Shown one piece after another: positions 4,172 through 17,970 of a stretch of 20,434 nt of DNA. The position numbers and the translations under genes are program-made. This DNA is from a virus: IMG/VR virus record IMGVR_UViG_3300027771_000135, positions 1-20,434 of that record. One strand, written 5' to 3'. Numbering within the stretch: the stretch's first letter is position 1; each line of letters starts with the position of its first letter. The notes under the pieces are model-generated. The model had not been told where the DNA came from, made no database searches, and was given only the letters and a program-made list of their open reading frames with translations.

Positions 4172-4939
4172 ATGGACTTTTTTGCAAACGACAGACCCGA
4201 CCAAAATAAAATTAACGAAGAAGCTGTGGCACAGGAAGCTGCACTGCAAGTCCTTGGGCCTATCAAAGCGTGGTCATTCTCTACCCTTACTAAATTTGAA
4301 GAGTGTCCATATCGTGTGTACCTCAACAAAGTAAAGAAACTCCCTGAGTCATCTGGCAGTGCTGCAGATCGTGGTACTGCTATACACACGCTTGCAGAAG
4401 ACTACACACAAGGACACATTGGCGAGTTACCCGAAGAGCTATCTAAATACACTGAGAGCTTTAAGCAACTGCGTAGCGATTACGAAGATGGCAAGGTAGA
4501 GATCGAAGGTGACTGGGGTTTCACACAATCCTGGGAACCAACAGGTTGGGCAGTACCCAATACCTGGGCACGCATTAAGTTAGATGCATTTGTTACGGAG
4601 AGCGAGACGTCAGGTCGTGCTATCGACCATAAGACAGGCAAGAAATGGAATAACGAACTAAAGCACGGCGCTCAGCTCATGACGTACGCAATTGCATCGT
4701 TCATGCGCTTCCCCAAAATGGAATACATAGAGACCGAACTTTGGTATTTGGATCAGAATCACGGGCCCACGATCCAAGCATATACCCGTGAACAAGCCAT
4801 GATGTTCTGGCCTAAGCTCAACAAAAGAGCACTCACCATGACGTCATGCACAGACTTTGAACCTAAGCCCTCTCGTCAAAACTGTAGATGGTGTACTTAC
4901 GCCAAAGACAATTCATGCGAATGGGGCGTTATAGATTAG
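4172..4939 (+). CDS. Cas4/RecB-like PD-(D/E)XK nuclease with Fe-S cluster cysteines
   Basis: This is a 255-residue exonuclease-like protein of the PDDEXK_1 group. The N-terminus has the typical S-x-L-x-x-F-x-x-CP motif (35-46, Cys45), then RG-x-x-x-H (R67, H72). The active site follows: Asp138 in RIKLDAF, then the D152-x-K154 core in IDHKTGK, and the Q168-x3-Y172 helix. Three further cysteines near the C-terminus (238, 241, 249) combine with Cys45 in the one-plus-three pattern that binds a 4Fe-4S cluster in Cas4 and AddB. The likely role is 5' or 3' end processing during phage replication or recombination. No CRISPR genes are nearby, so Cas4 function in adaptation is not implied. A GGAG ribosome binding site precedes the start. 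Confidence 0.88.
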   Translation: MDFFANDRPDQNKINEEAVAQEAALQVLGPIKAWSFSTLTKFEECPYRVYLNKVKKLPESSGSAADRGTAIHTLAEDYTQGHIGELPEELSKYTESFKQLRSDYEDGKVEIEGDWGFTQSWEPTGWAVPNTWARIKLDAFVTESETSGRAIDHKTGKKWNNELKHGAQLMTYAIASFMRFPKMEYIETELWYLDQNHGPTIQAYTREQAMMFWPKLNKRALTMTSCTDFEPKPSRQNCRWCTYAKDNSCEWGVID

Positions 4940-5045
4940 CCCAGCAGGCGGTGGCGCAAGTAACACCTGCAGCAGAGGCCAAAGTTCTCCGAGCCGAGTA
5001 ATATGCGGCGGAAGTTTGTAAGCGAGTGTGTCAGCACTCAAAACG

Positions 5046-5062
5046 AATGACACAGTGTCATT
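5046..5062. repeat. 17-bp palindrome in the gap after the nuclease gene
   Basis: This is a perfect inverted repeat, AATGACAC-A-GTGTCATT, unrelated in sequence to the TATAAGC palindromes. It lies in the 209-nt stretch 4940-5148 that has no convincing gene. It could be an operator or a small hairpin. It is not followed directly by a T-tract, although a T-run occurs at 5074-5079. Very short reading frames overlap it but are not called. Confidence 0.45.
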
Positions 5063-5148
5063 TATGCGAACGTTTTTTAAGACCTTACAACTCCAAATCC
5101 TTGCTTTGGTGACTCTGCACTTTTTCAATTCTAAACCATGGAGGTTCT

Positions 5149-5355
5149 ATGACCCTTTATTCACGACTCAAAACCTTATCGACTGATCGCAGCCTTAAAT
5201 ACGCTTCGATCGCATCGGTGTGCACAGTTGTACTGTCGCTATTATCCAGCGCACTCAGCTTTGTTGCTACCACCGTCATGGTGCTGCTCATTGCTGCGCT
5301 ACTTATCAAACTACTATGGGAGGTTTCCAATCGTGTTGAGAAACGTACTGATTAA
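5149..5355 (+). CDS. Small membrane protein (68 aa)
   Basis: This is the first of three overlapping small membrane-protein genes between the nuclease and the SNF2-like helicase. About residues 17-38 (ASIASVCTVVLSLLSSALSF) and 40-56 (ATTVMVLLIAALLIKLL) are two adjacent hydrophobic segments, probably a transmembrane hairpin. Charged residues are at both ends (RLKTLSTDR; NRVEKRTD). The start has a strong GGAGG ribosome binding site 4 nt upstream. The family is not recognised. Position among early genes suggests a role in host takeover, membrane attachment of replication or superinfection exclusion, but this is only inference. Confidence 0.7.
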   Translation: MTLYSRLKTLSTDRSLKYASIASVCTVVLSLLSSALSFVATTVMVLLIAALLIKLLWEVSNRVEKRTD

Positions 5356-5503
5356 TTTTCTAGTCTGGGCAGCATATGCCTATGACATTTTCACATTAGC
5401 CATGAACTGTGTTCAGTTCTTAATAGAGAGGTATCGCGATGTTAAGCGCCGGTTTGCTGACAGCACTAGGGATTCTGTTCCTATTGTACAAAGTCGGCTT
5501 TAA
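5333..5503 (+). CDS. Small membrane-associated protein with GTG start (56 aa)
   Basis: The reading frame begins at GTG 5333 inside the end of the preceding gene (23-nt overlap) and runs 65 nt into the next one. A very good ribosome binding site (GGGAGG, 8 nt before the GTG) decides this start. The protein begins LRNVLINFLVWAAYAYDIF, one long hydrophobic segment to about residue 33, followed by a basic tail with ERYRDVKRR. Family and function are unknown. The phased overlaps with both neighbours suggest translational coupling of the three genes. Confidence 0.55.
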   Translation: MLRNVLINFLVWAAYAYDIFTLAMNCVQFLIERYRDVKRRFADSTRDSVPIVQSRL

Positions 5504-5744
5504 ACGGGTCCTCGCCTACGATGTCATTGTTGACATCGTAGCAACTCTTGGACTCATGACTATTTTCGCAGGAACTTACGCAGGCATGATGGCAGCAATC
5601 GTTGGTGGCTTGTTCATCAGTGTTGTTCTTATCATTGCTAAAAAATTGTTTGGCTACGAAAAGCTAACATGCCTGTGGGTTCCATTCACTTATAAAAACA
5701 TTCCACTTATACGTCCACGTTTTATCTGGACGCCAGTCAACTAG
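5439..5744 (+). CDS. Small membrane protein (101 aa)
   Basis: This is the third member of the membrane-protein trio. Three hydrophobic stretches are visible, at about 2-18 (LSAGLLTALGILFLLYK), 27-45 (VIVDIVATLGLMTIFAG) and 48-68 (AGMMAAIVGGLFISVVLII), followed by a polar and basic C-terminus. A GAGAGG ribosome binding site lies 7 nt upstream of the ATG, within the coding part of the previous gene. The stop is 8 nt before the helicase start, whose own AGGAGG site overlaps the gap. No family is recognised. A holin-like topology is possible, but the place among replication genes argues against a lysis role. Confidence 0.7.
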   Translation: MLSAGLLTALGILFLLYKVGFKRVLAYDVIVDIVATLGLMTIFAGTYAGMMAAIVGGLFISVVLIIAKKLFGYEKLTCLWVPFTYKNIPLIRPRFIWTPVN

Positions 5745-5752
5745 GAGGACTT

Positions 5753-7123
5753 ATGGAGTTCTTTAAGAACACACCAGACTTGTACAAGCACCAGCGCGTT
5801 ACATCAGACTTTATTGCAGCTAATGACCGTGTGATTGTCACCTCAGATCCTGGCACTGGTAAGACTCGCTCAGTACTGCAGGCTTACACAGAAAACAAAG
5901 ACGGCAAGATGCTCGTCATTGCACCACTGTCCATCCTCCAGCCTAGCTGGGGTGACGACATTGAGCGGTTTAATCCAGAGCTCAAGTACGCTGTAGCGTA
6001 CGCTAAAAACCGAGCCAAGATGTTCTCAGAGAATGTAGACATTACGATTACCAATCACGATGCAGTCAAGTGGCTTGTCAATAACCCAGACGTTCTCGAT
6101 GGTTTCACATGGATTTGTATTGACGAGTTTACTGCGTTCAAAAATTCCACCAGCCAACGCTCCAAAGCAATAGCTAAGTTAGTGCATATGTTCAAACACC
6201 GCATTGTTATGTCAGGCACACCTAATGCCAACACGATCTTAGACATGTGGCATCCAGCCAAGCTTGTTGACGACGGTGAGCGTCTTGGCAAAAGCTACTG
6301 GGGTTATCGCTCTCAAGTATGTTCACCACAACAAGTCGGTCCTGACCCACGCATGGTTCAGTGGAAAGACAAGCCCGGCTCAGAAGATGCAGTTGCAGGC
6401 ATGCTCAAAGACATCTCCATACGTTTTCGTTTCGAGGACTGTATTGATGTCCCAGAAAATACAGAGCACACCATGTACATCGACCTGCCCCCTGCGTTAA
6501 TGAAACAGTATCGCGATTTCTCATGGGACTCCATGATTGACACCAATGACGGCGAGACGATCAATGCGATCCATGCAGGTGCCAAAGTCAAAAAACTATT
6601 GCAGCTATGCACAGGTGCAATCTATAACGAAGATGGCGTTCCTAAAGTATTCCACACACAACGCTATGATCTTGTCATGGAGTTAGTTGCTGCACGCAAG
6701 CACAGTCTTGTTGCTTTCAACTGGCGACATGAGCGCACAGAACTTTGCAAGCTCGCTGACAAGATGGGTATCGAGTATGCATACATCGACGGCACAGTGC
6801 CCGTTGCTCGACGTACTGAGATCGTTCGCGACTACCAAGCTGGTAAGCTCCAGGTTATTTTCTGTCACCCGCAGGCCGCTGGTCACGGACTGACATTGAC
6901 CAAGGGCACTACGACCATCTGGTGTAGCCCATCGTACAATGCCGAGCACTTCCAGCAGATGAACCGTCGTATCTACCGTGCAGGCCAGACACAAAAGACT
7001 GAGACCATCATGATCGCAGCCCGTGACACACACGAAACCAAAGTGTACGAGCGACTTGGCGAGAAGATGACACGCATGAATGACCTGTTGTCGTTGTTCA
7101 ATCAAATTACTAAAGCAGCATAG
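5753..7123 (+). CDS. SNF2-like superfamily 2 helicase/ATPase
   Basis: This is a compact 456-residue SF2 ATPase. Visible motifs are Walker A SDPGTGKT (31-38), motif Ia around VIAPLS (55-60), Walker B with D124-E125 in CIDEF (so DEFT rather than DEAH), motif III SGTP (154-157), motif IV region FNWR (322-325), motif V GHGLTLTKG (377-385) and motif VI QMNRRIYRAGQ (402-412), whose RAGQ ending is typical of SNF2 proteins. Such proteins translocate on double-stranded DNA. Phage versions are usually found in replication modules and may remodel recombination intermediates or protein-DNA complexes. No nuclease or SET-like extra domain is present. The start has AGGAGG at good spacing. Confidence 0.9.
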   Translation: MEFFKNTPDLYKHQRVTSDFIAANDRVIVTSDPGTGKTRSVLQAYTENKDGKMLVIAPLSILQPSWGDDIERFNPELKYAVAYAKNRAKMFSENVDITITNHDAVKWLVNNPDVLDGFTWICIDEFTAFKNSTSQRSKAIAKLVHMFKHRIVMSGTPNANTILDMWHPAKLVDDGERLGKSYWGYRSQVCSPQQVGPDPRMVQWKDKPGSEDAVAGMLKDISIRFRFEDCIDVPENTEHTMYIDLPPALMKQYRDFSWDSMIDTNDGETINAIHAGAKVKKLLQLCTGAIYNEDGVPKVFHTQRYDLVMELVAARKHSLVAFNWRHERTELCKLADKMGIEYAYIDGTVPVARRTEIVRDYQAGKLQVIFCHPQAAGHGLTLTKGTTTIWCSPSYNAEHFQQMNRRIYRAGQTQKTETIMIAARDTHETKVYERLGEKMTRMNDLLSLFNQITKAA

Positions 7124-9453: not shown

Positions 9454-9903
9454 TTGAACGAGCATGGATACATTCGTTCCGTCCACCGCCACTTGCCTGC
9501 AGAGATGCACAAGTGGAAAATCCATGATAACTACGCAGGCGGCGTTCCCGACTGCTGGTATGCAGGCCCTCACGGAAATATTTGGGTCGAGTACAAATGG
9601 ATTGCAGCCCTTCCAAAACGCGGCAGCACAGTCATTAAACCCAATCTTTCTGCACAACAATTAGCATGGCTAATAAAAATGTCTGGACAAGACATAAGCT
9701 GTGCTTGTATTATTGGGTCACCAGATGGAGGTATCCTTCTCACAGAGACGGACCACTGGGAACATGGACTTGTAAAATCGGTCTTGAATAAAGCTAATGT
9801 ATTACCAGCAAAGGACATTGCTCGTTGGCTAATTCAACACTGTATGGAGGCGGAATCAGATGACCACATTAAAAACAAAAACGGGCGCACCGCCCTCCAG
9901 TAA
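9454..9903 (+). CDS. VRR-NUC-like PD-(D/E)XK nuclease
   Basis: This is a 149-residue small nuclease. The active-site pattern GGVPD (29-33, P32-D33) followed by VEYK (45-48, E46-x-K48) after a 12-residue turn is the VRR-NUC/Holliday-junction-resolvase type of PD-(D/E)XK core. It probably cleaves branched DNA during replication or packaging. A stop codon lies directly upstream in frame, so translation must begin at TTG 9454 (GAAGAGG about 9 nt upstream) or at an internal Met18. The Met18 start would leave too little before the motif, so TTG is preferred. The C-terminus overlaps the repressor gene by 44 nt. Confidence 0.78.
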   Translation: MNEHGYIRSVHRHLPAEMHKWKIHDNYAGGVPDCWYAGPHGNIWVEYKWIAALPKRGSTVIKPNLSAQQLAWLIKMSGQDISCACIIGSPDGGILLTETDHWEHGLVKSVLNKANVLPAKDIARWLIQHCMEAESDDHIKNKNGRTALQ

Positions 9904-10537
9904 ACGAAGTCTATCCAAGGATTCCCTTGAGATGTCGCGGCGTATTACTAACTCATGGAATGACTATAAGAACAAGAAGTCTGGACAAGACCTTACTCAA
10001 CAAAACGCAGCTAAACAACTTGGCATTACCCAGCCAATGTTTAGTCAGATGTTGCACGGCACAGTTGCAGTTAATCCGATGATGGTGCTTTCTTTAGCAA
10101 GCCTGATTCGATGCGATTTGAGTTTGTTGGTAGCAGGACTTGATGAGTACAAGATCCTACATGCAGTTACGCCGACAAAGAGTATGGAAATTCCAGTGTC
10201 ATTAACATTAACGGGGAGAACCGTTACAGGGAAAACAGTAAATATCATGACGTTAGCAATCTCAGAAGCCTTTGCGGTCGAGATTGATACAGACGAGTAC
10301 TCACCACGCTACAGTGTGGGCGAATACGCCATAATAGAGCCACTAGCAAAGTGGGAAAAAGGTAATCAGGTTCTAGTCCGTTATGGAAAAGACTCCTGCA
10401 TTATTCGTGTCGTTACCAGTATCAATGGAGATGAGGTAGAGACCCATCATCCGACTGTCGTAGGCATAAGTACAACGATTAATTTAGCAGACCCAAAGAT
10501 CACCGTACGCGGTGTCATTCGAGGGGTGCAATTTTAG
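9860..10537 (+). CDS. XRE-family repressor with degenerate S24/LexA-like C-terminal domain
   Basis: This 225-residue protein is the likely lysogeny regulator. An HTH_3 DNA-binding domain spans about 45-85 (LTQQNAAKQLGITQPMFSQ contains the HTH). The C-terminal part (about 130-222) follows the peptidase S24 pattern: AFAVEI, then TDEYSPRY where cleavable repressors have GDSM-x-P, then VLVRYGKDSCIIRVV where they have the catalytic Lys. The Ser position is Glu146 and the Lys position is Ile182 or Ile181, so RecA-stimulated self-cleavage looks impossible. Such repressors usually need an antirepressor for induction. The start at ATG 9860 is supported by GGAGG 9 nt upstream even though it lies inside the nuclease gene. 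No divergent promoter pair is seen. Confidence 0.85.
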   Translation: MTTLKTKTGAPPSSKRSLSKDSLEMSRRITNSWNDYKNKKSGQDLTQQNAAKQLGITQPMFSQMLHGTVAVNPMMVLSLASLIRCDLSLLVAGLDEYKILHAVTPTKSMEIPVSLTLTGRTVTGKTVNIMTLAISEAFAVEIDTDEYSPRYSVGEYAIIEPLAKWEKGNQVLVRYGKDSCIIRVVTSINGDEVETHHPTVVGISTTINLADPKITVRGVIRGVQF

Positions 10538-10539
10538 TT

Positions 10540-10740
10540 ATGAACAACTTTAATTTTAGTAAAATGCGCTGTAAAAAGTTAGCTTGGATGCTGGAGGATT
10601 GGCCTAATTGGTTATTTCTCGTTGATGCGTATAGCCACTTAATTCCGCGTGTTGCAGTTAGTAGTCCAGAATTTGCGTTTATGCAAACGAACTTTGGCAA
10701 CAACCAAAACCAACAGTGCCAGCAAGGGCCACCTAATTAA
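10540..10740 (+). CDS. Hypothetical protein (66 aa)
   Basis: The protein is not recognised. It begins 2 nt after the repressor stop, so it is probably translated from the same message. The sequence is rich in aromatics early on (WMLEDWPNWLFLVDAYSHL) and in Asn/Gln at the end (NQNQQCQQGPPN). No clear ribosome binding site stands before the ATG, which lowers confidence. A T-run after its stop (10742-10748) is not preceded by a convincing stem. Confidence 0.5.
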   Translation: MNNFNFSKMRCKKLAWMLEDWPNWLFLVDAYSHLIPRVAVSSPEFAFMQTNFGNNQNQQCQQGPPN

Positions 10741-10757
10741 CTTTTTTTAAACCTCCA

Positions 10758-10778
10758 AATATAAGCAGGGCTAATAAC
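10758..10778. promoter_or_regulatory. Palindromic operator-like site 3, upstream of DUF3310 gene
   Basis: The left arm AATATAAGC (10758-10766) is identical to the left arm at 1577-1585. The spacer AGG is the same as in site 2b. The right arm GCTAATAAC matches only 6 of 9. The site abuts the ATG at 10779, so a bound protein, or a hairpin in the message, would interfere with expression of the DUF3310-xis-int group. Confidence 0.5.
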
Positions 10779-11006
10779 ATGAAAGAACACGATATGGTTA
10801 AACAACCAATGCACTATCAATCCGATACAGGAATGCAATGCATTGACGCCATACGCGCTGCACTAGGACCGGAAGGATTCCGGGCCCATTGCAGAGCGAC
10901 CGTAATTAAATACCTATGGAGGGAGAAATGGGACACCGCAGAGGATGCCAAAAAGGCAGCGTGGTATCTCAATAAATTGGTTGAATCATATGAAGATGCT
11001 AGATAG
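10779..11006 (+). CDS. DUF3310 family protein
   Basis: This is a 75-residue DUF3310 protein. The family signature is clear: HY (13-14), CIDAIRAALGPEGF (21-34), CRATVIKYLWREK and the closing EDAKKAAWYLNKLV. Such proteins are often named nucleotide kinase-like or SaV-like in phage genomes, but no kinase motif is visible here and the function is unproven. It follows palindrome 3 directly and overlaps the excisionase gene by 17 nt. Confidence 0.85.
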   Translation: MKEHDMVKQPMHYQSDTGMQCIDAIRAALGPEGFRAHCRATVIKYLWREKWDTAEDAKKAAWYLNKLVESYEDAR

Positions 11007-11286
11007 AGTAACGATTAGTAAGTTTTCAGAATTATCAGGCTATACAGAAATAGCCATACGTTCTAAAATAAGTGAAGGTGTGTGGCAAGAGAATGAAGTA
11101 TTCTCTAGAGCACCCGACAATAGGATATTGATTAGCCTCGGAGGATACGAAGCATGGGTAGACCAAAAACGTACAAGGGGGTCGCAAAAGCGTCTAAAAG
11201 TTCAATCGAAGTACGATTTTACTACCCAGACTCCAAAACAGAACAACGCGAGCGCATTGAACTTGAGCCCACCCCCGCTAATTTAG
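10990..11286 (+). CDS. xis: Excisionase-like DNA-binding protein
   Basis: This is a 98-residue protein placed directly before the integrase. The N-terminal part VTISKFSELSGYTEIAIRS with KISEGVW, then RAPDNRILISLGGYEAWVD, is the pattern of prophage excisionases with a MerR-like winged helix (recombination directionality factors). The rest is a basic low-complexity tail. ATG 10990 is chosen because the family begins only a few residues before VTISKF. ATG 10996 is also possible, and no strong ribosome binding site distinguishes them. The last 133 nt overlap the integrase start in another frame, so the tail may be constrained by the integrase sequence. Confidence 0.75.
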   Translation: MKMLDRVTISKFSELSGYTEIAIRSKISEGVWQENEVFSRAPDNRILISLGGYEAWVDQKRTRGSQKRLKVQSKYDFTTQTPKQNNASALNLSPPPLI

Positions 11287-12329
11287 AACGGTGTTTTGTA
11301 CACCTCTCGCAAATCAAAGATGCCATTAAGAATGGCTCCTTTGATTACGCCGCTACCTTCCCAAATTCTAAAAGAGCCGCGTTATTCGTCAACAAGCGAC
11401 AGGTCTATACTTTCCTAAAACACTGGCTGAACAGTCATTACAGTATTGGACCAGGCACTTACACCTTTTATAAACGAATCATCGAGGGCCAAGTTAAGAA
11501 ATCTTCTTTAGCAAAAACTAAAGTGGTCAATCTAACATGGCCTATGGTAAAAGATTGGGCATTAGCCATGCAAGTGCTCCCCTCGACACGCACTCAACGA
11601 ATTGCCGTGCTACGCGACGTACTTAACGCAGCGGTAGAAGAAGGGATTATCTCTGTGAATCCCCTATTAGGTAAGAAACTCAAAAAACAAACAGTGGTTA
11701 TCAAATCTGAAGCCACGCGAATTGACCCTTTCTCTTGGGAAGAACGAGAAGCTATTATTGGAGCCGCCTCTAAACAACTTGGATTGCAGCTAATGTTCCA
11801 GTTCTTTACGGGAATGCGACCAGAAGAGATTCGAGGGTTATGCTGGAGCCGTGTCGATTTCATTGGCTGCACTGTTCTAATCGATCAGGTCATCGTTGAT
11901 GCAAGTCCCAATAAATTTCAGCCGCCTAAATCACAAGCCTCTTATAGAACAATTGATTTAGTTGGCCCTGCAATCCAATGTCTAAGAGCGTACAAAGAGT
12001 ATTCCTTCCTCAAAGGAGTAGAGCCAAATGACATTGTGTTTATGAATCCGCTCACTAGCCAGCCTTGGAGTACGACTAATAAAATACGAGCGCAGTGGAA
12101 ACAAGCATTAAAGAAAGCAGGGGTTCGCTACAGAATACCTTATCAAACCAGACACACTTACGCATCGCAGATGTTAAATGCGGGTGAAGAGCTTACCTAT
12201 ATTGCAAAACAAATGGGACATGCTGACAGTTCGACTACGCTAAAGTATTACGCACGATTTATTAAAAATACTGGGGTCAAACATGGATCAAAAATGGAAG
12301 CGGCTTACAAAGAGTTTTTATCGAAATAG
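11154..12329 (+). CDS. int: Tyrosine recombinase integrase
   Basis: This 391-residue phage integrase catalyses integration at the host tRNA site. The N-terminus (1-75) is the DUF3596 type arm-binding domain (YKGVAKASKSSIEVRF and PTPANLERCF). A SAM-like core-binding domain covers about 80-175. The catalytic domain shows Arg222 (FTGMRPEE), Lys259 (PPKSQAS), Y330-x-x-R333 (PYQTRHTY, Tyr in place of the first His as in many phage integrases), His356 (QMGH) and the nucleophile Tyr365. GGAGG stands 9 nt before the ATG. The gene ends 74 nt before the attP core, the classical int-attP arrangement. Confidence 0.95.
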   Translation: MGRPKTYKGVAKASKSSIEVRFYYPDSKTEQRERIELEPTPANLERCFVHLSQIKDAIKNGSFDYAATFPNSKRAALFVNKRQVYTFLKHWLNSHYSIGPGTYTFYKRIIEGQVKKSSLAKTKVVNLTWPMVKDWALAMQVLPSTRTQRIAVLRDVLNAAVEEGIISVNPLLGKKLKKQTVVIKSEATRIDPFSWEEREAIIGAASKQLGLQLMFQFFTGMRPEEIRGLCWSRVDFIGCTVLIDQVIVDASPNKFQPPKSQASYRTIDLVGPAIQCLRAYKEYSFLKGVEPNDIVFMNPLTSQPWSTTNKIRAQWKQALKKAGVRYRIPYQTRHTYASQMLNAGEELTYIAKQMGHADSSTTLKYYARFIKNTGVKHGSKMEAAYKEFLSK

Positions 12330-15581: not shown

Positions 15582-17596
15582 AATAGTTCGTTCACGTTGT
15601 CTGCAATGCTTATACTGTTTACAGGCGCTGTTCCTGCCACTTCAAATTCCCATTGCTTTACGCGACTGCCCGAGGGCAAATGAAAAGGATCATTGCTAGT
15701 TACGCTATAAGTATATGCAAGATTTGCATTCGCTGGCGTCGTTGCCGTCCCACCCATACCACTGTGATTAGTACAGTAGTAGTACAATGTTGCGGCACTT
15801 GCAGCAACAACAATCTGCGTGTAAGCCCCAGCACTACCAGCAGTTCCTACTGTTGTGACGCCAGTGGTATAAGCAGAACCGCTGTTATGTGTGCCATTAG
15901 ACGTTGCTGAAAATCTTAAAGGATGGCCACTGTTGCTTGATGCTGACTGATCAAATTTATAAGTGTAGCCTTCTTTTAAACTAACTGTAGCTTGCATCAC
16001 TCCGTCGATGTAGTACTTATTTCCTGAACCTGGATTAGAAACTGTAACTGCAAATGTAGTTAGAGCTGGCGGTGTGACGTCTGTAAACAACTTAAACGTA
16101 ATAGGATAAGAGTCAGCGTCAACGCGCGCCCAACCTAAATTGCGTGGCTTGGTGCTAACGTAAGATTTAGATTTCCAAACGTAGTTAGCAAAACCACTGC
16201 CCTGCCCAAATTTCTTGACCGCTGTGCCGTCGACAAAATACAAACAGTCGCTTTCCAAATGATTGTAAGCACCGTCATAGGTTTCACTACTTGTAGACAA
16301 AGCGTTCTTGCCCCCACGGGGGTCAAACAAAATACTCTCTGTAGCATTAGAGGCGATGTACGTGCCTTCATAATTCATGGCTTTTAGAGTAGTTGGGTTG
16401 TAAGCCTGCCACTGTGAGCGGCGAAGCAATGCTTCGGTCACTAACTGTATCTGTTGACCTTGCACTGTGACTAACCCATCAGGAGAGGCGTAAATTACAT
16501 ACCCGCCCATATCTACCATGGACATTTTACTGACGCAGGCTTGGTCACTCTCCAATTGGATGAGGCTAATAGACGCTGGATCTGAACCTTGGGCGATGTA
16601 CGGTTTGCCCTTAGTACCAACTACTAGTCCACCGGGCGTTGGCTTGATCGCAACAATATCTGATTCTGTTGCTAGCTGATAGCTAGTAGGCCAAGCGTGT
16701 GGTAAATAAGGCACACTGAAACAAAGTGTCTTGCCAGTAAACCCGGCCATGATGCCGTTGCCTATAGAGCATATCCCTTGCATTGGACCTGTTGGAAACA
16801 ATGTTGCATTGTCATCAGGTGGACGCATCCAAGTTACTGAAGGGATTAATTCCCCTAGTGCAGTGCTAGTTGTCGCCTGAGCGGAAACAACACCACCGAC
16901 CATTGTGGGTGTTGTTGTGGATGCATAGCTTGAATTGGCTGTGCCTAACTCCACATACGATGTGGCAGTGTAAGCCACTTCAGCAACAAACTGAAAACCT
17001 GTAGAAGAGCTGCCTGTGTTAGTTCTATAAATACGTTTTAGAGAACCTGTAGTAAAATTAAGGCCAGAAGTAGAAGGCATAGCTGGTAAGCTGAGCGTTG
17101 TAGTCTGTCCGTTTCTAAACGCAACTGCTGTGCTTGCAAATGATGGAGGGCCCTCTTCTCCCCAACTAGTGACAAATGTAACGACATAGCTTCTACTCTC
17201 TTCTAGTTCATCTGGCGATACGGCGCCTGTTACTGAAACAGTTGGCGCAGCTGTAGGAGCTGGCACACCGAGTCGGTATGGACCTCCGTCATTTCGATAT
17301 ACTTTTGGGTACGTTTCACCTGTGTAGTACACCCGTTCAGTTACGTCATTCACAATCGGACCTTCAACAATGTCGACTTGTGAAGCGTAGCTTTTCCAGA
17401 TGGAGCCAGAGTAGAGATAAACTGTGTTGGTTCCACTTGGTACTGTAGTCACTGACGCAGAGTGGTCAGGTAACGCCTCTAAACGACCTGAATCTAAACG
17501 CACGTTAAGTGCTGACTGCGCTATTGATTCGGCAAGTAACCGAGGAGCAATCTTAGGGGCAATGCCGTTGAACTGTGAGACGCTAAAATTAGCCAT
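15578..17596 (-). CDS. Structural (tail/stem) protein with inserted cupredoxin-like domain
   Basis: This protein of about 672 residues begins MANFSVSQFNGIAPKIAP. ATG 17596 is chosen over TTG 17608 because GGAG lies 6 nt upstream. The N-terminal and middle parts resemble virion stem or stabilisation proteins of marine phages (beta-rich, with a FnIII-like part around 115-235 and repeats of the VDMGGYVIYASPDGLV type). Near the C-terminus, 15734-16063 encodes a cupredoxin-like domain. It has His in GHPLRF, then YYYCTNHSGMGG, giving His-Cys-His-Met ligands spaced as in amicyanin (C-x2-H-x2-M). The sequence resumes with SNDPFHLPSG and WEFEVAGT, so the domain looks inserted into an older fold. It is coupled by ATGA and TAATG overlaps to both neighbours. 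Confidence 0.8.
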   Translation of the reverse strand: MANFSVSQFNGIAPKIAPRLLAESIAQSALNVRLDSGRLEALPDHSASVTTVPSGTNTVYLYSGSIWKSYASQVDIVEGPIVNDVTERVYYTGETYPKVYRNDGGPYRLGVPAPTAAPTVSVTGAVSPDELEESRSYVVTFVTSWGEEGPPSFASTAVAFRNGQTTTLSLPAMPSTSGLNFTTGSLKRIYRTNTGSSSTGFQFVAEVAYTATSYVELGTANSSYASTTTPTMVGGVVSAQATTSTALGELIPSVTWMRPPDDNATLFPTGPMQGICSIGNGIMAGFTGKTLCFSVPYLPHAWPTSYQLATESDIVAIKPTPGGLVVGTKGKPYIAQGSDPASISLIQLESDQACVSKMSMVDMGGYVIYASPDGLVTVQGQQIQLVTEALLRRSQWQAYNPTTLKAMNYEGTYIASNATESILFDPRGGKNALSTSSETYDGAYNHLESDCLYFVDGTAVKKFGQGSGFANYVWKSKSYVSTKPRNLGWARVDADSYPITFKLFTDVTPPALTTFAVTVSNPGSGNKYYIDGVMQATVSLKEGYTYKFDQSASSNSGHPLRFSATSNGTHNSGSAYTTGVTTVGTAGSAGAYTQIVVAASAATLYYYCTNHSGMGGTATTPANANLAYTYSVTSNDPFHLPSGSRVKQWEFEVAGTAPVNSISIADNVNELL

Positions 17597-17970
17597 TAGT
17601 AACTCCAAATATTTGGTCGTGCAAACCCATCATCAATTGTTAGGTCGTCAAGATGTATAAATCGACCGCCACCTTTTTGCTGAACACCGAGCCCTGTAAT
17701 GCCGAACTCAAAAGCTACCTTTATTAATTTAATAGCTTTGTCACCGCGCACAGCTATATCAACAGCACGACCACTGGCATGTGTTCCAGGCTTTGCTTTC
17801 TTAGCTTCTATAGGGTGGGTAGGGTCACGGTATGCAGAGGTTATTGTGAAAGGGAAATCACATTTAATACGGATGGCTTCAAGCGTAATCATAAAGCCAG
17901 GGTCCATCAGACACTTTCCAGAATGGCTGCATTTTAACTCGTCTTCGGTAAAATATTTCCAATCGCTCAT
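17596..17970 (-). CDS. Endolysin, peptidase M15 (D-Ala-D-Ala carboxypeptidase-like)
   Basis: This 124-residue peptidoglycan peptidase is probably the phage lysin. The signature ITSAYRDPTHP (43-53) is followed by GTHASGRAVDI, with zinc ligands His64 and Asp71, and by FIHLD with the third ligand His106. The length is typical of the minimal M15A catalytic domain without a wall-binding part. There is no signal peptide, so export needs a holin. Its stop overlaps the start of the downstream structural gene (TAATG), and its start overlaps the stop of the coiled-coil/TM gene by 4 nt. Confidence 0.88.
   Translation of the reverse strand: MSDWKYFTEDELKCSHSGKCLMDPGFMITLEAIRIKCDFPFTITSAYRDPTHPIEAKKAKPGTHASGRAVDIAVRGDKAIKLIKVAFEFGITGLGVQQKGGGRFIHLDDLTIDDGFARPNIWSY

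What the first reader, a model, noticed from the sequence alone, without database searches (positions are those of the whole stretch)
5149..5744. Three mutually overlapping small membrane proteins inside the replication block
Genes at 5149-5355, 5333-5503 (GTG) and 5439-5744 each have their own good ribosome binding site and overlap in different frames. All are hydrophobic and of unknown family. A membrane trio between a Cas4-like nuclease and an SNF2-like helicase is unexpected and may be a superinfection-exclusion, anti-defence or membrane-anchoring unit.
Basis: partly seen in the sequence, partly recalled or inferred. Interest (0 to 1): 0.6.

Follow-up and report, generated by a model that had tools for sequence, protein, structure and literature searches.

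The report
Conserved three-gene phage membrane cassette
Three tiny overlapping genes in a marine phage's DNA-replication block really do encode membrane proteins; they have been kept together across distantly related phages, and the third belongs to a widespread phage family, encoded early where the map can be read, whose job is still unknown.

Summary
The ORFs at 5149-5355 (g1), 5333-5503 (g2, GTG) and 5439-5744 (g3) exist, each with a good ribosome binding site. All three frames are kept in three other phages with an ungapped 596-nt region. The same g1-g2-g3 architecture recurs after the Cas4-like nuclease in two further diverged lineages. g3 is the core: a 3-TM family (at least 268 IMG/VR places; PHROG 19152/37899/29412, function unknown), also in early regions of alphaproteobacterial Autographiviridae and Pseudomonas phage KPP25. 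Two cultured relatives annotate it 'holin class I' from topology alone. I argue against lysis: ten of ten genomes with an M15 endolysin carry it at least 12 kb away on the other strand, and two cultured relatives have a separate holin. Best guess, weakly held: an early inner-membrane host-takeover or superinfection-exclusion complex. Unexpectedly, the leader before g1 carries a conserved pseudoknot RNA, in about 30 phage or prophage copies, with perfect covariation and no Rfam match; it may be the more novel find.

The parts
4172..4939 (+). Cas4/RecB-type exonuclease, gene upstream of the cassette
   Evidence: phrog_69 exonuclease E 1.1e-28; conserved upstream neighbour of the trio in three lineages
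4937..5118 (+). Structured leader RNA: pseudoknot core 4937-4972, stem GCAGAG 4972-4977 with CTCTGC 5113-5118 preceded by UGA 5110-5112
   Evidence: Conserved in window, L001, L002, L004; pattern in 26 IMG/VR stretches and 7 bacterial contigs; covariation; no Rfam match
5140..5145 (+). Shine-Dalgarno of g1 (GGAGGT)
   Evidence: sequence; CATGGAGG invariant in 4 relatives
5149..5355 (+). g1: 68-aa hydrophobic protein, predicted alpha-helical (one long helix 15-67 in the AF2 model), basic N-terminus
   Evidence: (pN/pS 0.30); weak profile link to g1 of lineages B and C (47% probability)
5319..5324 (+). Shine-Dalgarno of g2 (GGAGGT), inside g1
   Evidence: sequence
5333..5503 (+). g2: 56-aa protein (GTG start), one hydrophobic segment and a basic tail
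   Evidence: Frame and start kept in L001, L002, L004; pN/pS 0.17 in own frame; tail over g3 unconstrained
5428..5432 (+). Shine-Dalgarno of g3 (GAGGT), inside g2
   Evidence: sequence
5439..5744 (+). g3: 101-aa three-TM inner-membrane protein, core of the cassette; invariant D28, D32, G45, G49, G57, K68; C-terminal Trp
5753..7123 (+). SNF2-type DNA helicase, gene downstream
   Evidence: phrog_62 E 1.7e-105
17596..17970 (-). M15 endolysin, separate late module on the other strand (evidence against a lysis role of the trio)
   Evidence: Peptidase_M15_3 E 1.3e-9, phrog_894 endolysin E 1.2e-24

Best explanation
Shown: the three ORFs form a conserved, compact cassette of small membrane proteins. 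g3 is the ancient core and g1 and g2 are fast-evolving companions. Inferred: the overlapping genes are translationally coupled and make a stoichiometric inner-membrane complex during the early or middle phase of infection. g3 sits N-out/C-in with three helices; its helix 2/3 hairpin (invariant D32, G45xxxG49, G57) oligomerises, and its basic, Trp-ended C-terminal tail faces the cytoplasm. Most likely role (weakly held): an early host-takeover function at the inner membrane, most plausibly superinfection exclusion in the manner of T4 Imm, blocking entry of a second phage genome. The confidence given is for the exclusion or takeover mechanism. For 'real conserved membrane cassette, not lysis' it is about 0.8.
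For: Frames kept and selected. Trio recurs after Cas4 in lineages A (window, L001, L002, L004), B (L008, L085, L040, L122) and C (L119-L121, L123-L128). g3 family: 268 places in IMG/VR but none confirmed in 84,980 bacterial and archaeal species genomes, so it appears phage-restricted (the second pattern was narrow). Early position in lytic phages: between the genome end and the primase in Rhizobium phages Paso, Palo and RHEph02, and the seventh gene of KPP25's rightward block. Topology: K/R means 0 (N-term), 3.0 (loop 1), 0 (turn), 8.0 (tail); AF2 shows three helices, pLDDT 72. M15 endolysin at least 12 kb away on the opposite strand in window and 9 of 9 relatives. Separate PHROG holins in ParKuw1 and SI01.
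Against: No sequence or fold link to any exclusion protein. No expression data: early timing is read from gene order only. In two marine contigs (L032, L051) g3 lies directly upstream of a small TM protein and a GH108 endolysin, as a lysis gene would. g3 occurs without g1/g2 in many phages, so the three-part complex is not obligatory. g2 of lineages B/C is not detectably homologous to g2 of lineage A.
Confidence: 0.33

Rival explanations
1. g3 is a class I holin (or the trio a holin/antiholin set) that controls lysis.
For: Three TM segments, N-out/C-in, basic C-terminus; annotated 'holin class I' in Rhizobium phages Paso and Palo on topology; next to a GH108 endolysin in L032 and L051.
Against: Separate endolysin module on the opposite strand and at least 12 kb away in 10 of 10 genomes with M15; GH108 is 7 kb away and opposite in 5 of 7. 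ParKuw1 and SI01 have their own holin beside the endolysin. No holin family matches g3. Early-region location in lytic phages.
Confidence: 0.2
2. The trio anchors the phage replisome to the inner membrane, like phi29 p16.7 or p1.
For: Kept between Cas4-like nuclease and SNF2 helicase within a pol-primase-nuclease-helicase block in three lineages; cytoplasmic basic tail on g3.
Against: phiA008 joins nuclease to helicase with no membrane gene, and KPP25 has a soluble protein there. g3 sits outside the replication block in KPP25 and the Autographiviridae. No DNA-binding domain.
Confidence: 0.15
3. Early anti-defence or other host-targeting membrane function (for example inhibition of a membrane protease, transporter or membrane-acting defence).
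For: Early position, phage restriction and fast-evolving companions fit host-interaction genes; invariant intramembrane Asp32 suggests a specific intramembrane partner or ion function.
Against: No match to any known anti-defence or defence family; no target identified.
Confidence: 0.22
4. g2 is a spurious frame and only g1 and g3 are genes.
For: g2's C-terminal overlap is unconstrained, and its stop at +52 in relatives is a by-product of g3's conserved [FY]K codons.
Against: Start, SD and WAAYAYDIFTLAM core kept in all four lineage-A phages; pN/pS 0.17 against 2.7 and 1.3; same pattern in lineage C (0.31 against 0.58 and 1.63).
Confidence: 0.07

Closest known systems
PHROG families 19152, 37899, 29412, 26075 (unknown function): early 3-TM proteins of Rhizobium, Agrobacterium, Stappia and Paracoccus Autographiviridae and Pseudomonas KPP25/phiR18
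   Same: g3 is a homologue (E down to 1e-12 across the family; Foldseek hits Atu_ph02, RHph_Y1_20, phiR18), with invariant Asp32 and Gly49 and a C-terminal Trp
   Different: Those phages lack recognisable g1/g2, and the gene lies in the early region rather than behind a Cas4-like nuclease
Class I holins (lambda S type)
   Same: Size, three TMs, predicted N-out/C-in, basic tail
   Different: No sequence match; away from the endolysin; separate holins elsewhere; charged invariant Asp inside helix 2
T4 Imm and other superinfection-exclusion membrane proteins (own knowledge)
   Same: Small early inner-membrane phage protein
   Different: No detectable homology; exclusion not tested
Overlapped or embedded phage spanin genes Rz/Rz1 (PMC6139136)
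   Same: Small membrane-protein genes overlapping in different frames
   Different: No lipobox or coiled-coil i-spanin; not in a lysis module

Membership tests
PHROG_19152 / 37899 early membrane protein family (g3) | Significant profile match over the TM region | tested here: met
   E 1.8e-9 and 1.2e-8 for the window protein; 30 of 30 family members match
PHROG_19152 / 37899 early membrane protein family (g3) | Shared motif (Asp32, Gly49) and fold | tested here: met
   alignment of 16; Foldseek probability 1.00 to Atu_ph02, RHph_Y1_20, phiR18
Class I holin | Three TM segments, N-out/C-in | tested here: met
   AF2 helices 2-19, 21-42, 47-71; charge distribution
Class I holin | Match to a holin family | tested here: not met
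   no Pfam, NCBIfam or PHROG holin match
Class I holin | Encoded with the endolysin in the late lysis module | tested here: not met
   opposite strand and at least 12 kb away in window and 9 relatives; exceptions L032 and L051
Class I holin | Triggers lysis on expression | not testable with these tools
   experiment needed
Superinfection-exclusion protein | Blocks entry of a second phage genome | not testable with these tools
   experiment needed
Superinfection-exclusion protein | Homology to a known exclusion protein | tested here: not met
   none found in PHROGs, Pfam, PADLOC or PDB
Two-component spanin | o-spanin lipobox and SPase II signal | tested here: not met
   no lipobox seen by eye in the g1 or g2 translations; no signal-peptide predictor was run

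The most novel reading that the evidence does not exclude
The trio is a dedicated three-subunit inner-membrane complex used early in infection, and its expression in this lineage is gated by a new class of phage structured RNA in its leader (H-type pseudoknot plus a UGA-bulged stem). That RNA is reused before unrelated genes in many gammaproteobacterial phages and prophages.
Probability: 0.25. Interest if true: 0.72.

Novelty: new variant of a known kind. Interest (0 to 1): 0.5.

Why it matters
g3 is a common unknown small membrane protein of marine phages, present in at least 268 IMG/VR places, and its cultured homologues (RHEph02, Atu_ph02, KPP25) make it testable. A probably wrong 'holin' label is already entering annotation. 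The conserved overlap shows that gene callers will miss real partners such as g2. The leader RNA, absent from Rfam 15, could be a new regulatory element of phages.

Tried and rejected
Close DNA relatives among named phages: none. g1 homologues among named phages: none. g3 in bacterial genomes: none confirmed. Defence, Pfam and NCBIfam families: none. PDB by sequence and fold: no meaningful hit. Homology of g2 between lineages: not detectable. Shared g2 stop position at +52 as evidence for g2: rejected, it follows from g3 codons. Sigma-70 promoter between Cas4 and g1: none found. Literature on function of the g3 family: nothing found; the Atu_ph02 endolysin paper is not held. Known RNA families for the leader: none. 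The leader as a whole does not fold clearly better than shuffles (z -1.7, -0.2, +0.7); the RNA claim rests on covariation in the core, not on energy.

Full report
OBSERVATION. g1 (5149-5355, 68 aa, ATG) has GGAGGT at 5140-5145; g2 (5333-5503, 56 aa, GTG) has GGAGGT at 5319-5324; g3 (5439-5744, 101 aa, ATG) has GAGGT at 5428-5432. g1 and g2 overlap by 23 nt, g2 and g3 by 65 nt. The flanking genes are a Cas4/RecB-type exonuclease (phrog_69) and an SNF2-type helicase (phrog_62), inside a block with DNA polymerase and primase.

IS IT MORE THAN CHANCE. Three IMG/VR phages (L001, L002, L004; L003 has the same trio protein sequences as L004) keep all three frames with their start and SD in a 596-nt region of identical length. 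In the stretch covered by g2 alone, 15 of 24 variable columns are at g2 codon position 3; pN/pS is 0.17 in the g2 frame but 2.70 and 1.31 in the other two. g1 and g3 give 0.30 and 0.31. In the g2/g3 overlap the selection is on g3 (0.19), not g2 (8.7), so g2's last 15-20 residues are passive. The shared stop at +52 in most relatives is likewise a by-product of g3's conserved [FY]K codons and is not used as evidence. The window's four extra codons arise because Tyr17 is TAC.

BEYOND CLOSE RELATIVES. Searching with g3 and then with the diverged g2 gave two further lineages. In both, the Cas4-like gene is followed, directly or after one to three small genes, by a hydrophobic g1 (50-65 aa), a one-TM g2 (41-42 aa) whose end overlaps g3, and g3: lineage B (L008, L085, L040, L122) and lineage C (L119-L121, L123-L128). 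g2 of lineage C also evolves as protein where it is alone (0.31 against 0.58 and 1.63), whereas the two lineage-B comparisons are too small to decide. g1 of lineage A and g1 of B/C show a weak full-length profile match (47% probability, 49 columns); g2 does not. Thus g2 is conserved by position, not detectably by sequence, across lineages. Lineage C was collected with a g2 query, so its completeness as a trio is partly by selection; lineages A and B came from g3 queries.

THE CORE. g3 belongs to a large family: 268 confirmed places in IMG/VR and none confirmed in the bacterial and archaeal genome collection. It matches PHROG 19152 and 37899 in 30 of 30 members scanned. Named relatives are early-region proteins of alphaproteobacterial Autographiviridae and KPP25 ORF031, the phage genus whose primase and helicase are also among the nearest to the window's. 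Asp32 and Gly49 are invariant in the 16-sequence alignment with the Autographiviridae; a Trp near the C-terminus is in all 43 distinct viral-contig members. AlphaFold gives three helices and a short C-terminal beta pair at moderate confidence (pLDDT 72). Positive charges predict N-out/C-in. A model of g1 gives one long helix from 15 to 67, which fits a membrane helix but does not settle one pass or two.

WHAT IT DOES. The only function on record is 'holin class I' in Rhizobium phages Paso and Palo, with the note that it rests on three predicted TMs. I tested this by position. The window has an M15 endolysin in a separate module on the other strand. In all nine relatives where the M15 family was found it is on the opposite strand from g3 and at least 12 kb away (distances computed from the listed contig ranges). 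ParKuw1 and SI01 have a separate PHROG holin next to their endolysin as well as the g3 homologue. Against this, two marine contigs, L032 and L051, have g3, a small TM protein and a GH108 endolysin in a row, although in five others the GH108 gene is about 7 kb away on the other strand. On balance lysis is less likely than an early role. Phage restriction, early placement in lytic phages, rapid change of g1/g2 and absence of catalytic domains fit a host-directed membrane function. I put superinfection exclusion first, at about one in three, because that is what early small inner-membrane phage proteins of this kind are known to do in T4 (own knowledge). No experiment or homology shows it here. 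Replisome anchoring is less likely: phiA008 and KPP25 lack a membrane gene between nuclease and helicase, and g3 is elsewhere in KPP25 and the Autographiviridae.

AN UNEXPECTED LEADER. Between the Cas4 stop and g1 lies a conserved non-coding stretch. Its core, A[C/G]CCC-R-GC-R-GGCGGTGG-[G/C]-GC-NNN-TAACACC-Y-GC, was found in 26 IMG/VR stretches and 7 bacterial contigs including Pantoea, Saccharospirillum, Endozoicomonas and Methylophaga. In 30 distinct copies, base -8 (not part of the search pattern) pairs with base 9 as C-G 20 times and G-C 10 times, without exception; base -1 pairs with base 22 as G-C 27 and A-T 3. The named pseudoknot pairs 100% of cells with a covariation score reached by 0 of 500 shuffles and by none of the slid controls. 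About ten copies share a downstream stem whose 3' strand is preceded by UGA, including the window (GCAGAG 4972-4977 with CTCTGC 5113-5118). There is no Rfam 15 match. It lies in many copies just after a stop codon and about 100-200 nt before the next gene, among them single-stranded DNA binding proteins, terminases and replication genes (these gene names are my reading of the translations, not a family search). Two of its eight core pairs vary, so it is supported but not proven. DNA-level function is not excluded.

VERDICT. The trio is real and conserved; its function stays open. Calling g3 a holin is not supported by position. The cassette is a new variant among small early phage membrane genes, and the leader RNA deserves its own study.

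Noticed in passing
window 4937-5118: Conserved pseudoknot RNA (or DNA) element in the leader of the trio, in about 30 phage or prophage copies before unrelated genes, with perfect covariation and no Rfam 15 match.
   Followed up: partly
L119-L128 (not L122), about 30-120 nt upstream of g1: Lineage C has a terminator-like hairpin and a conserved palindromic stretch TTCCCGATCGGAAT at the place where lineage A has the pseudoknot RNA; possibly a different regulatory site at the same junction.
   Followed up: no
L032 3983-5144, L051 3992-5311: g3 followed by a small TM protein and a GH108 endolysin; the same TM protein accompanies g3 in other marine contigs where the endolysin is elsewhere.
   Followed up: partly
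L096 3553-3869: g1-like and g2-like small proteins upstream of g3 but separated from it, in phages where g3 lies before the DNA polymerase.
   Followed up: no
MT708544 and MT708546 (Rhizobium phages Palo and Paso): The g3 homologue is annotated 'holin class I' on topology alone; likely over-annotation.
   Followed up: yes
L023 2043-2543 and L025 1674-2141: Three adjacent overlapping small hydrophobic genes about 0.8-0.9 kb upstream of the g3 homologue in Rhizobium phages; possible analogue of g1/g2.
   Followed up: no
window 9860-12329: HTH repressor-like gene and integrase next to the replication block: the window phage is probably temperate, unlike most g3-bearing named phages.
   Followed up: no
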